From NCBI RefSeq assembly GCF_007641235.1, contig NZ_CP038157.1, positions 2,170,001 to 2,234,000 of the forward strand: a stretch of DNA of 64,000 nucleotides, written 5' to 3'. Each line of letters starts with the position of its first letter. Within the stretch, counting starts at the first letter, position 1. Below are positions 20,015-56,939 of the stretch, in pieces. The notes beneath the pieces are model-generated. The model did not search any database. It was not told the DNA's origin and saw nothing but the letters and a program-made list of their open reading frames with translations. The DNA comes from Corynebacterium sanguinis. GTDB lineage: Bacteria > Actinomycetota > Actinomycetes > Mycobacteriales > Mycobacteriaceae. Both the position numbers and the translations under genes were made by a program.

Positions 20015-20440
20015 ATGTCACGGTCGACGTGGTTACCGGGGGTAAAACAGCAGGTCGGGGGTGTTGTAAACCGCTTCACCGTGACATCTTGACCGGTGCA
20101 ATGTCACGGTCAACGGGGTCCGGGGTGCAAAACCCCAGTTCGGCGGTGCCGGGATCGGCTTCACCGTGACATCTTGGCCGGTTAAATGTCACAGTCAACG
20201 GGCAGCGGAGTACAAAACCGCAGGTCGGCCACCCAGCAAACCACTTCACCGTGACATCTTGACCGGTGCTATGTCACGGTCAACGGGGTCCGGGGGGCAA
20301 AACCCCAGTTCGGCGGTGCCGGGATCGCCTTCACCGTGACATCTCAGCCGGTCAAATGTCACAGTCAACGGGCAGCGGGACACAAAACCCCAGTTCGGAC
20401 ACGCCGAGAACCCCCTGACCGTGACATCCCGGCCACGAAA
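20015..20440. repeat. Array A: five tandem 85-bp repeats
   Basis: Units begin at 20015, 20101, 20186, 20271 and 20356 (periods 86, 85, 85, 85). Each begins ATGTCACGGTCAAC or ATGTCACAGTCAAC, has a core CAAAACCCCAG or close variant, and ends CTTCACCGTGACATC. The end of one unit and the start of the next form an inverted repeat (ACCGTGACAT and ATGTCACGGT, about 14-base loop). Units 2 and 4, and 3 and 5, are most alike, suggesting duplication in pairs. The last unit ends with a variant, CTGACCGTGACATC. The array lies between the converging yceI and SbcC-like genes. Period 85 is not a multiple of three, so it is not coding. Confidence 0.9.
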
Positions 20441-29895: not shown

Positions 29896-30507
29896 GTGCG
29901 CTACTACCTCGCTGCCCTCATCGCCCTCACCCTCGCCGTCATTCCGTTCCCCACCCCGCGCTCGCTTATCGACGCCCCCACCAACGCCTCCCCCGCCCAG
30001 CGCACCACGATGCTGGGCTATGAGCGAGACGCCTTCGGCCCCGGCTGGGCCCCCGTCGCCGACGGATGCGACACCCGTGACACCCTGATGGCCGAGGCGT
30101 TCGGCGCCGTCTCGTGCGACTCCCCGCATAGCCAGTGGGTCTCCAGCCCCATCACGGACCCCTACACGGGCGCCCCCTTGGAACCCGCTGATGTCGAGAT
30201 TGACCATCTCTACCCCCTCGCCGCGGCGTGGGACGCCGGCGCACACGCCTGGCCCGGCCCCACGCGCATCGCCTTTGCCAACGATCCGCGAAACCTCGTG
30301 GTCACATCCGCCGAGGCGAACCGGTCCAAGTCCGACCAGCTCCCCAGCGAATGGCTGCCACCCGCCATCCGTTCCCGCTGTGTCTACGCCCGCCGGCTCG
30401 TCGCCGTCGCCCGGGAGTACTCGCTAGCGATGCCCCACCCGGACCTGCGCGCGGCGCGGCGCGCATGCACGGGTCTCACCGGGCTAATTGGCCGACCCTA
30501 CCTGTAA
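29896..30507 (+). CDS. Secreted HNH-family nuclease (DUF1524-like)
   Basis: The N-terminus (MRYYLAALIALTLAVIPFP) is a signal peptide or anchor, so the protein acts outside the cell. The catalytic region is VEIDHLYPLAAAWDAGA, with the DH pair of an HNH beta-beta-alpha metal site, followed by NDPRNLVVTSAEANRSKSD, the typical NxxN/K partner of DUF1524 and GmrSD-type HNH domains. Four cysteines may form disulfides. GTG 29896 is 12 bases after putP. Likely a nutrient-scavenging DNase; DNA as substrate is inferred from the family. Confidence 0.85.
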   Translation: MRYYLAALIALTLAVIPFPTPRSLIDAPTNASPAQRTTMLGYERDAFGPGWAPVADGCDTRDTLMAEAFGAVSCDSPHSQWVSSPITDPYTGAPLEPADVEIDHLYPLAAAWDAGAHAWPGPTRIAFANDPRNLVVTSAEANRSKSDQLPSEWLPPAIRSRCVYARRLVAVAREYSLAMPHPDLRAARRACTGLTGLIGRPYL

Positions 30508-30510
30508 GGT
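30505..30510 (+). promoter_or_regulatory. -10 box for the membrane protein gene at 30518
   Basis: TAAGGT ends seven bases before the ATG, overlapping the end of the nuclease gene; indicates an independent leaderless transcript. Confidence 0.5.
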
Positions 30511-30517
30511 GGAGCAC

Positions 30518-31006
30518 ATGAATACTGTCTTCGTTCTGCTGCACGTAGCCGCCGCAATCCTGCTGCTCGGCCCCGTCATGGTTGCCGCCTCCATGTTCCC
30601 CCGCCAAGCTGCGGAAGCCCGTTCCGGTGCCCAGGAGTCAGTGGGCCGCGCCAGCGTTTTGCAGCGCCTCACGTCTACCTACGGCATGCTCTCCGCGCTC
30701 GTCCCGCTGCTCGGCGCCGTGGTACTGATCTTCGGCTGGGATGTCTACAAGACGAACTACTTCCTGCACACCGCCATCATCCTCGCGCTGATCGCCTGGG
30801 GCATCCTGTTCTTCATGGTCATCCCGCAGCAGCGCAAGATGATGGGCACCCTCAACGCGCTCGACCCGGCCGAGGCCGACCAGAGCGACTACACCTCCAA
30901 CTTCGAGGGCGCGAAGGCAAAGGCCACTGCCGGCGCGGGCATCTTCAACCTGCTGGTGATCATCACCCTGATCCTGATGTACCTCCCGTCGACTATCTTC
31001 GCGTAA
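30518..31006 (+). CDS. Four-helix integral membrane protein (DUF2269-like)
   Basis: The 162 residues have four hydrophobic segments (about residues 4-26, 57-77, 84-105 and 138-158), with conserved-looking GPVMVAASMFPRQA and MVIPQQRKMMG loops. Length and pattern resemble the DUF2269 family of unknown function. The start at 30518 (MNTVFVLLHVAAAILLLG) is set by the -10 box; the frame is open upstream to 30488. A strong terminator follows. Confidence 0.75.
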   Translation: MNTVFVLLHVAAAILLLGPVMVAASMFPRQAAEARSGAQESVGRASVLQRLTSTYGMLSALVPLLGAVVLIFGWDVYKTNYFLHTAIILALIAWGILFFMVIPQQRKMMGTLNALDPAEADQSDYTSNFEGAKAKATAGAGIFNLLVIITLILMYLPSTIFA

Positions 31007-31019
31007 AGGTTTCATCGCA

Positions 31020-31052
31020 GCGGCAGCCCGGTTGGTCGGGCTGCCGCTTTTT
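31020..31052 (+). terminator. Rho-independent terminator
   Basis: A perfect 11-bp stem, GCGGCAGCCCG / CGGGCTGCCGC, with loop GTTGGT and a TTTTT run (31048-31052), 14 bases after the membrane protein gene. Confidence 0.92.
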
Positions 31053-31084
31053 GTGTGTTTGTAGGGGTTCGGTTTTTTGGGGGC

Positions 31085-31570
31085 CGCAAAAGCCCAGGTC
31101 GGATGTGGCCGGTACGGCTTCACCGCGACATCTGACCCAGTGAAATGTCACGGTCAACCGGCAACCGCATGCAAAACCCCAGGTCGCCGCAGCCCGACTC
31201 GGCTTCACCGTGACATCTGACGCGGTGGAATGTCACAGTCAACCGGCACCAGCGTGCAAAACCCCAGGTCGCCGCAGCCCGACTCGGCTTCACCGTGACA
31301 TCTGACGCGGTCGAATGTCACGGTCAAGCTGCAACCCAGCGCAAAAGCCCAGGTCGGATGTGGCCGGTACAGCTTCACCGTGACATCTGACCCAGTGAAA
31401 TGTCACAGTCAACCGGCACCAGCGTGCAAAACCCCAGGTCGCCGCAACCCGACTCGGCTTCACCGTGACATCTGACGCGGTGGAATGTCACAGTCAACCG
31501 GCGCCAAAGAGCAAAACCCCAGCTTACAACAACCCCACCCAGCCTGACCGTGACATCTGACCCGGCGAAA
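31085..31570. repeat. Array B: one partial and five full 85-bp tandem repeats
   Basis: Full units begin at 31145, 31230, 31315, 31400 and 31485, exactly 85 bp apart, preceded by half a unit from 31085. Layout is as in array A: start ATGTCACGGTCAA or ATGTCACAGTCAA, core CAAAACCCCAGGTCG or close variant, end CTTCACCGTGACATCT. The half unit resembles unit 3, and unit 1 resembles unit 4, suggesting a 255-bp duplication. As in array A, the last unit ends CTGACCGTGACATC and a CGAAACACC-like boundary. It too lies between converging genes (membrane protein and DEAD-box helicase). Confidence 0.92.
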
Positions 31571-31583
31571 CACCACCCCCAAA

Positions 31584-31620
31584 CAAAAAGCACCGACACT
31601 ACCGAAGTAGTGTCGGCGCC
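31584..31620 (-). terminator. Rho-independent terminator of the DEAD-box helicase gene
   Basis: On the minus strand a stem (CCGACACTAC pairing with GTAGTGTCGG, extended by two more pairs past a mismatch) closes on a TTCG tetraloop and is followed by CTTTTTGTTT, 26 bases after the helicase stop. Confidence 0.92.
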
Positions 31621-31645
31621 CATTCAGCCGTCAGAAGCCAGCGAA

Positions 31646-33769
<2,124 letters not shown>

Positions 33770-55805: not shown

Positions 55806-56939
55806 ATGGCTACCTCACTTTCCCAAGACCAGGTCCGCGAAGCGCTCTCGCGTGTGGATGACCCCGAGATCGGCAAACCCATTACCGAGCTCGACATGGT
55901 CGAATCCATCGCCATCGACGGCGCGGACGTCTCCGTCGGCATCTATTTGACCATCGCTGCCTGCCCCATGCGTGACACCATCGCCTCGAACACCCGCGCC
56001 GTGCTCGAGGAGCTCGACGGTGTGGGCAGTGTGGACGTTCACATGCACACGATGAGCGACGAGCAGCGCCGCGCCTTAAGCCTCAAGCTGCGCGGCGAGC
56101 AGACCACGCCGACGATCCCCTTCGCAGACCCGGAATCGCTCACCCGCGTCTTCGCCGTCGCCTCTGGCAAGGGCGGGGTGGGCAAATCCTCTGTCACGGT
56201 CAACCTCGCAACCTCCCTCGCCGCGCAGGGATTAACCGTGGGCATCCTCGACGCCGACATCTACGGCCACTCCGTGCCGCGGCTGATGGGCTCGACCGGC
56301 ATCTCGCCCACGGTCGTCGACGAGATGATCATGCCCCCGATTGCCCACGACGTGCGCCACATCTCCGTGGGGCAGTTCGTCGAGGGCAACGCGCCAATCG
56401 TGTGGCGCGGGCCGATGCTCACCCGCGCGATCCAGCAGTTCTTAAGCGACGTCTACTGGGGCGACCTCGACGTGCTGTTCATGGACCTGCCGCCGGGCAC
56501 CGGCGATGTCGCGATCACCGTGGCCCAGCTCGTGCCCAACGCGGAGCTTCTCATCGTGACCACCCCGCAGGCCGCCGCCGCGGAGGTCGCCGAACGTGCC
56601 GGCACGATCTCCCAGCAGACGGGCCAGAAGATCGCGGGCGTGGTGGAAAACATGTCGGGCATGGTGCTTGACGACGGCACCGTGCTCAACGTCTTCGGCG
56701 AGGGCGGCGGCGAGCAGGTCGCCGAGCGCCTCAGCGCGCTGACGGACACCGACAACGTCGCGCTGCTCGGCTCCGTACCGCTCGACCCGCAGCTGCGACA
56801 GCACGGCGACGAGGGCACCCCCGTGGTCATCTCTAACCCGGATTCCCCCGCCGCGCGCGCGATCGCTGAGATTGCCGCCAAGCTCAAGACGCGCCGCACC
56901 TCGCTCGTGGGCAAGGGGCTGGGCGTCAACCCGCGCTAA
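55806..56939 (+). CDS. mrp: Mrp/NBP35-family iron-sulfur cluster carrier ATPase
   Basis: 377 residues: an N-terminal MIP18/DUF59 domain (VDDPEIGKPITELDMVE) and a deviant Walker A ATPase domain, GKGGVGKSS at residues 121-129, DADIYGHSVPRLMG and MDLPPGTGDVAITV. The CxxC that ligates the cluster in other Mrp proteins is absent; the matching site reads SGMVLDDGTVLNVFGEGGG. Predicted role is carrying or assembling Fe-S clusters. It lies convergent with tatB. Confidence 0.93.
   Translation: MATSLSQDQVREALSRVDDPEIGKPITELDMVESIAIDGADVSVGIYLTIAACPMRDTIASNTRAVLEELDGVGSVDVHMHTMSDEQRRALSLKLRGEQTTPTIPFADPESLTRVFAVASGKGGVGKSSVTVNLATSLAAQGLTVGILDADIYGHSVPRLMGSTGISPTVVDEMIMPPIAHDVRHISVGQFVEGNAPIVWRGPMLTRAIQQFLSDVYWGDLDVLFMDLPPGTGDVAITVAQLVPNAELLIVTTPQAAAAEVAERAGTISQQTGQKIAGVVENMSGMVLDDGTVLNVFGEGGGEQVAERLSALTDTDNVALLGSVPLDPQLRQHGDEGTPVVISNPDSPAARAIAEIAAKLKTRRTSLVGKGLGVNPR

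What the first reader, a model, noticed from the sequence alone, without database searches (positions are those of the whole stretch)
31085..31570. Second copy of the 85-bp repeat family, with the same right-hand boundary (array B)
Five and a half units at exactly 85-bp spacing share array A's arms and core, again between converging genes. In both arrays the last unit ends CTGACCGTGACATC instead of CTTCACCGTGACATC, followed by a CGAAACAC-like sequence. A common closing unit suggests arrays are founded and extended by a mechanism, not by chance slippage. Strong ordinary terminators flank array B on both sides, so termination alone does not explain it.
Basis: partly seen in the sequence, partly recalled or inferred. 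Interest (0 to 1): 0.75.

Follow-up and report, generated by a model that had tools for sequence, protein, structure and literature searches.

The report
Core-and-arms DNA sites in actinobacteria
The repeats are copies of a DNA site made of one fixed 17-letter core between two mirror-image arms whose letters differ between lineages, spaced by whole turns of the double helix; it looks like an undescribed protein docking site rather than an ordinary repeat.

Summary
Array B is real: five complete 85-bp units plus a half, between two terminator-like hairpins. It is one of 19 arrays found in the genome. The 'common closing unit' fails (3 of 19 arrays). Array length does change by whole units against a sister species.

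The unit is a 72-bp element: inverted arms around a core, GCAAAACCCCAGGTCGC. The core (16-mer, up to 1 mismatch) is in 101 of 242 genus genomes (reversed control: 13) and in other actinobacteria, notably Coriobacteriia, but with different inverted arms, perfect over as much as 36 bp. Three results favour a double-stranded DNA-protein site over an RNA hairpin or MITE. The offset between the two arm-core gaps shows a 10.5-bp period (weaker under a stricter cut-off). In one Enterorhabdus genome all 34 arm pairs fall into two spacing classes one helical turn apart. In that genome the copies share arms and core, while the rest of the interior averages 31% identity. Some loci, array B's among them, carry the family in another species with other arms.

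Best reading: an undescribed composite site, with a conserved protein on the core and a lineage-specific one on the arms. Neither protein is identified; function is inferred.

The parts
31086..31131 (+). First, incomplete element of array B: core (31086-31102, GCAAAAGCCCAGGTCGG) and right arm, no left arm
31145..31216 (+). Element 1: left arm, core at 31171, right arm
31230..31301 (+). Element 2: left arm, core at 31256, right arm
31315..31386 (+). Element 3: left arm, core at 31341, right arm
31400..31471 (+). Element 4: left arm, core at about 31426, right arm
31485..31556 (+). Element 5, the 'closing unit': degenerate core (GCAAAACCCCAGCTTAC), right arm CCTGACCGTGACATC
31019..31048 (+). Terminator-like hairpin after the left gene
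31588..31621 (-). Terminator-like hairpin after the right gene
30488..31006 (+). Left neighbour gene, 172 aa; its orthologue marks the same locus in six other genomes
31646..33769 (-). Right neighbour gene, DEAD-box RNA helicase, 707 aa
20015..20428 (+). Array A, same family

Best explanation
Array B is a tandem multiplication of a composite double-stranded DNA binding site. Shown from sequence: each element is an asymmetric conserved core (GCAAAACCCCAGGTCGC) between two inverted arms; arms and core are conserved while much of the spacer sequence is not; where the arms are not symmetric about the core, the offset tends to whole helical turns; arm sequence differs between species and between loci of one genome; some loci carry the element in several species with different arms; arrays change by whole units. 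Inferred: a protein shared by the lineages that have the core binds it, probably bending or wrapping the DNA, and so presents the two arms side by side to a dimeric arm-binding protein whose specificity drifts with the lineage. Tandem units raise the local dose of this complex. Inferred with lower confidence: the role is architectural (chromosome organisation, partition-like or boundary function) rather than termination or control of one gene, because arrays lie in convergent, divergent and codirectional gaps.
For: Arms: for 320 distinct core sites in hand, inverted-repeat scores run well above a flank-swap control; perfect arms of 24 bp in Williamsia (L265), 20 bp in Gordonia (L251), 32 bp in Enterorhabdus (L214), 36 bp in L319, whose organism the listing did not show. 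Phasing: right gap minus left gap is 2 to 4 bp in 58 of 108 distinct elements; with cross-unit pairs left out, 26 asymmetric family-by-offset classes peak at 10.5 bp (R 0.58; p 0.0001 at 10.5, p 0.0035 over all periods tried). Separate test in Enterorhabdus sp. P55: 69 arm matches, reversed control 0, form 34 inverted pairs spaced 127-128 bp (12) or 137-140 bp (22), with one match left over. Conserved parts in P55: mean pairwise identity 0.89 in the core and 0.31 in the rest of the interior (14 elements, 91 pairs; the highest single pair is 0.67); core within 3 mismatches in 14 of 17 interiors, within 4 in 0.4% of shuffles. Same locus, other arms: the ackA end in own and G020 (ATGTCACGG arms) and in G066 and G203 (GTCGAC arms), and the array B locus in own and G066.
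Against: No protein is identified for core or arms. With a stricter arm score the asymmetry test weakens: 19 classes, p 0.0026 at 10.5 bp but 0.0885 over all periods. Taken singly, the two arm-core gaps show no 10.5-bp period across families. In P55 the two arms of one element are more alike than arms of different elements (24.88 against 23.43 of 26; 0 of 5000 permutations), which pairing or conversion between arms would give; own arms show no such co-variation and at three position pairs fall below shuffled expectation. 3 of 17 P55 interiors have no recognisable core. Array B is absent at the same gene pair in four relatives, so new sites do arise. In the phylum sample the core is in 25 of 396 genomes against 12 with the reversed control: it marks certain lineages only.
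Confidence: 0.57

Rival explanations
1. Non-autonomous mobile element: the arms are terminal inverted repeats recognised by a transposase supplied in trans, the core is a bending-protein site that lets such a short element synapse; arrays are nested or duplicated copies.
For: Inverted ends, many copies with shared ends in one genome, several end families per genome, array B absent in four relatives; helical phasing would also suit synapsis of a very short transposon.
Against: P55 copies do not share interiors (mean 0.31). None of the 34 P55 arm pairs is far enough apart to hold a transposase gene (one draft genome). RAYT transposases: 0 in own genome, 5 of 242 genus genomes. Some loci carry the element in several species with different arms. 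Other transposase families and target duplications were not tested.
Confidence: 0.2
2. Nucleic-acid hairpin: the arms pair in RNA, single-stranded DNA or a cruciform, with the core in the loop (terminator, mRNA stabiliser, structured RNA).
For: Arms are complementary whatever their sequence; the two arms of a P55 element co-vary.
Against: Arm offsets and P55 spacings step by a helical turn, which a loop would not need; own arms do not co-vary; no Rfam match in six array loci; the terminator-like sites lie outside array B; arrays also lie in divergent gaps.
Confidence: 0.12
3. Break, fork-stalling or recombination site: the complex stops or cuts DNA at the arrays, which explains changing unit number and the composition switch around them.
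For: Whole-unit length changes; left flank A .11 C .21 G .40 T .28, right flank the mirror image, as strand-specific deamination towards the array would give.
Against: The switch is missing around single elements: left above right in 2 of 5 (G015) and 1 of 11 (P55), and 25 of 51 in the mixed set; it fades within about 100 bp; no break data.
Confidence: 0.08
4. Plain minisatellite, spread by slippage, without function.
For: Unit number varies by whole units.
Against: The same core recurs across genera with other arms and phased geometry.
Confidence: 0.03

Closest known systems
Correia repeat enclosed elements (Neisseria)
   Same: Short intergenic element with inverted ends and a conserved core that can bind IHF (PMC2649163, start of abstract in the listing).
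   Different: As I recall, the ends are constant in that family; here the ends differ by lineage and the centre is conserved. No Correia sequence was compared.
BIME / RIP elements of enterobacteria (recalled)
   Same: Palindromic units in inverted pairs around an architectural-protein site; tandem forms; intergenic.
   Different: No REP unit recognised here; arms not conserved between species.
REPINs with RAYT transposases (recalled; PMC3733652 passages for REP families)
   Same: Inverted doublets, many copies, lineage-specific sequence.
   Different: Constant central core; RAYT absent from own genome and in 5 of 242 genus genomes. The text of PMC3733652 has no occurrence of Corynebacterium, Actinobacteria, Eggerthella or Collinsella.
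P1-type plasmid partition site parS and the GalR-HU loop (recalled)
   Same: A bending-protein site between two arms that carry the specific recognition; spacing tolerated in whole helical turns.
   Different: Chromosomal, many copies, no partner protein known.
AbiF / Abi_2 non-coding RNA (RF03085; PMC12373285 abstract and passages)
   Same: In Collinsella relatives a core lies 130-150 bp before an Abi_2 gene.
   Different: No Rfam hit there; of 30 Corynebacterium Abi_2 loci 2 hold a core at up to 3 mismatches, both over 700 bp from the matched domain.

Membership tests
REPIN / RAYT-REP | RAYT-type gene (Y1_Tnp, PF01797) in genomes that carry the element | tested here: not met
   0 in own genome; 5 of 242 genus genomes (G018, G045, G060, G087, G091)
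REPIN / RAYT-REP | Conserved terminal palindrome, variable spacer | tested here: not met
   constant core, arms that vary between families
MITE | Copies homologous over their whole length | tested here: not met
   P55 core 0.89, rest of interior 0.31 (highest pair 0.67)
MITE | Longer parental element with the same ends | tested here: inconclusive
   all 34 P55 pairs are 127-140 bp apart, but one draft genome and one arm family only
MITE | Target-site duplication | not tested
   outer arm boundary is not sharp
Correia element | Correia terminal repeats | not tested
   no Correia sequence fetched or compared
BIME/RIP | Architectural protein bound at the centre | not testable with these tools
   needs binding assays
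Intrinsic terminator | GC-rich hairpin with T run inside the unit | tested here: not met
   the 2 sites found in 30900-31750 lie outside the array
Known RNA family (Rfam 15) | Covariance-model match | tested here: not met
   six array loci including A and B, E up to 1, two tRNAs only; three Abi_2 loci, none
CRISPR array | Constant repeats with unique spacers | tested here: not met
   whole units recur; cas genes were not searched
P1-type parS | Arms at matched helical phase about a central site, whole-turn spacing | tested here: met
   (likeness of architecture only; the P1 features are recalled)
P1-type parS | ParB-type protein on the arms | not testable with these tools
   partner unknown

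The most novel reading that the evidence does not exclude
Several actinobacterial lineages carry a chromosomal site whose core is read by a conserved protein while the arms are read by a protein whose code is rewritten lineage by lineage, with some sites staying at the same loci: a bacterial counterpart of a drifting centromere or recombination-hotspot code. The composition around Corynebacterium arrays (excess of T over C and of G over A on the strand running towards the array, on both sides) could be the scar of recurrent strand opening or breakage centred on them.
Probability: 0.25. Interest if true: 0.95.

Novelty: categorically new. Interest (0 to 1): 0.8.

Why it matters
A DNA element with a constant core and interchangeable inverted arms, phased on the helix, matches no repeat family that I know or that the searches here showed. 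The 17-bp core is a direct handle for finding a conserved binding protein and a partner that evolves with its target, in bacteria where few sequence-specific chromosome-organising proteins are known. It also offers a natural test of how a genome-wide recognition code can change while some sites keep their place, and the variable unit number could serve for strain typing.

Tried and rejected
Terminus clustering: seven arrays between 1.08 and 1.25 Mb would look like a terminus domain if the origin were at position 1; dnaA at 810 kb removed that. RNA family: no Rfam hit in the loci given. Abi_2/AbiF link: followed in Collinsella relatives, not general in Corynebacterium. RAYT link: rejected. Recurrent neighbour gene as arm-reader candidate: the flanking-protein clusters are orthologous loci, repeat fetches of one locus or common families; no shared regulator stood out. 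Carriage by plasmids or phages: array B (351 bp, distant mode) has no match in either collection; in viral contigs the 17-mer is in 2 stretches. Phasing of each gap taken singly: no 10.5-bp peak. Literature: AAAACCCCAGGTCG and its complement are in no held paper; six other core and arm strings gave 37 papers, of which the 15 listed look unrelated by title, the other 22 were not seen and none was opened; general searches showed no description of this element in the rows listed. The library holds open-licence PMC papers only, so absence in print is not proved.

Limits: genes around arrays come from a simple ORF caller written here. Family clusters use shared 8-mers, single linkage; they merge unrelated arms (one cluster of 99 of 151 elements), which lowers the number of classes. 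The synteny test was given 79 loci; 9 without a core near the middle were dropped by the script, leaving 70. The G066 locus at array B was found by looking there, so it is not an unbiased draw. Searches used loci in hand, not a random sample. One search pooled values and kept cross-unit pairs of tandem arrays; one search is the cleaner test and gives the weaker figures quoted. P55 interior and core counts use 17 distinct elements in hand of 34 pairs.

Full report
What was checked. The window is G000:C1:2170001-2234000 of a 2,362,885-bp, single-contig genome. Array B is as described: period 85, five complete units and a half, between converging genes, with a terminator-like hairpin on either side.

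The unit. The 72-bp stretch from the left arm (ATGTCACGGTCAA) to the right arm (ending CCGTGACAT) is the element and the 13 bp between elements is a linker. In the divergent array at 787,570 the arm starts that bound an element stay 63 bp apart while the linker spacing goes from 22 to 41, 83 and 42. Over 103 units, information is high in the two arms and in the core around AAAACCCCAGGT and low in much of the two spacers. I found 19 arrays in the genome. The origin is near 0.81 Mb (dnaA) and the arrays are not gathered at the terminus.

The closing unit. The exact closing sequence of arrays A and B closes 3 of 19 arrays. What is general is a composition switch: the 60 bp left of an array hold 0.69 G+T, the 60 bp right of it 0.31, in 19 of 19 arrays and in convergent, divergent and codirectional gaps alike; 53 gaps without the core average 0.45 to 0.52 on either side. 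The effect fades within about 100 bp. Left exceeds right around arrays of relatives too: G020 15 of 16, G066 10 of 10, G117 6 of 6, G203 5 of 7, G041 3 of 3, G058 3 of 3; but not around single elements: G015 2 of 5, P55 1 of 11, mixed GTDB loci 25 of 51. The flanks read A .11 C .21 G .40 T .28 on the left and the mirror image on the right. This is unexplained; strand opening centred on the arrays would give it.

Arrays change by whole units. Ten arrays could be aligned through to G020, with offsets of -85, +170, +170, +254, +84, +425, +425, 0, +765 and +595 bp (L062, L064, L065, L069, L070, L071, L072, L074, L075, L078; my arithmetic on the coordinates; one search counts cores). At the array B gene pair G041, G058 and G117 have no array; G020 has none either, but a short palindrome of another arm type, GCTGAGGTATAGCAGCTATACCTCAAC; G203 keeps the left gene with another neighbour and no array (read by eye).

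The core is shared, the arms are not. A sequence profile of own units matched 13 of 242 genus genomes, some with other arms: GTCGAC type in G066 and G203, AATGTGACAT type in G117. At least two of the thirteen look like chance, lying in genes (G017, G062, by eye). The core alone, 16-mer with up to one mismatch, is in 101 of 242 genus genomes (59 copies in own, 58 in G066); the reversed control is in 13 of 242, one copy each. In an even sample of the phylum the core is in 25 of 396 genomes against 12 with the control. Around the core sit inverted arms of unrelated sequence, commonly 13 to 36 bp. In the first set of 30 genus loci, though, about half showed no arm above its shuffles. G148 has at least four arm families, and own genome a second one at 1,665,498. 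For 320 distinct core sites in hand, arm scores run well above a flank-swap control.

Helical phasing. In 58 of 108 distinct elements the right gap exceeds the left by 2 to 4 bp; many of the others sit about whole turns away (-8, +13, +23, +34), with exceptions such as -12. With cross-unit pairs left out and one value per family and offset, 26 asymmetric classes give R 0.58 with a peak at 10.5 bp, p 0.0001, or 0.0035 when any period is allowed; with a stricter arm score there are 19 classes, p 0.0026 and 0.0885. The gaps taken singly show no such period. A separate test is clean: in P55 69 arm matches form 34 inverted pairs, 12 spaced 127-128 bp and 22 spaced 137-140 bp, one match left over. 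Where the core is recognised there, it stands 31 or 41 bp from the arm on its A-rich side, 14 of 14.

What is conserved. In P55 the core is within 3 mismatches in 14 of 17 distinct interiors; 0.4% of shuffles reach 4. Core identity averages 0.89, the rest of the interior 0.31, with one pair at 0.67. Recently transposed copies would share their interiors. Of 12 P55 cores tested, 10 lie outside called genes (4 convergent, 4 codirectional, 2 divergent). The two arms of one P55 element are more alike than arms of different elements (24.88 against 23.43 of 26), while own arms do not co-vary and at positions 8, 11 and 13 pair less often than shuffled. Conversion between arms, or a dimeric reader that needs two equal sites, could explain the first; neither is shown.

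Same loci, other arms. Neighbour proteins of array loci were compared across eight genomes (70 of 79 loci usable). The ackA end holds arrays in own, G020, G117, G066 and G203, with at least two unrelated arm families. The array B locus holds an array in G066 with GTCGAC arms. One locus is shared by G058 and G066 with different arms. Own and G066 share 2 loci of 19 and 10. In Coriobacteriia a purine nucleoside phosphorylase locus holds elements with different arms in Collinsella intestinalis (L271) and P55 (L449).

Mechanism. A constant asymmetric core, two equal arms at matched helical phase, free spacer sequence and whole-turn length changes are what a looped or wrapped nucleoprotein complex would leave: one protein on the core, a symmetric pair on the arms. 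P1 parS and the GalR-HU loop are the likenesses I recall; membership in either is not claimed. Since arm families differ between lineages while some loci stay, the arm reader would have to co-evolve with its sites. Both proteins, and the function in the cell, remain to be found.

Known families. No Rfam match at E up to 1 apart from two tRNAs in six array loci, and none in three Abi_2 loci. Y1 transposases are absent from own genome and in 5 of 242 genus genomes. Array B has no match in the plasmid and phage collections. Papers: PMC12373285 (outline with abstract, and passages), PMC3733652, PMC12306157 and PMC2267715 (passages found by term), PMC2649163 (start of abstract in a listing). None describes this element in what I saw.

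Noticed in passing
window 20015-20428 and 31086-31556; L061-L079: Flanks of all 19 arrays switch from G+T-rich on the left (0.69) to C+A-rich on the right (0.31 G+T) within about 100 bp, in every gene orientation; core-free gaps do not.
   Followed up: partly
L080, from G000:C1:1665498: Three elements in the same genome with the core (third one degenerate) but other arms (TTTGGACTGCGCAATT type), about 135 bp apart.
   Followed up: partly
L234, L267, L277 and ten related loci: In Collinsella and relatives a core lies 130-150 bp before an Abi_2 gene within a near-identical block found in several genera.
   Followed up: partly
L081 (G076), L084 (G013), L085 (G122): A different palindrome, CCGTGACATYRATATTCACAATGTCACCGT, matched the arm-pair pattern once in each of three genomes.
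   Followed up: no
L152, L156: AAAACCCCAGGT also forms one half of ordinary terminators after tRNA genes, so a single core match is not always an element.
   Followed up: no
L448-L477 (Enterorhabdus P55): Outside the 26-bp arms many elements show a further shared GYGCAG-like word about 20 bp out on both sides, so the footprint may reach about 200 bp (by eye).
   Followed up: no
window 29896-30507: Small gene with a weak match to the HNH part of Cas9 models (E 6e-4), two genes before array B.
   Followed up: no
L061:3806-3877 (G000:C1:55805-55876): A tRNA gene about 100 bp before the array at 55,973.
   Followed up: no
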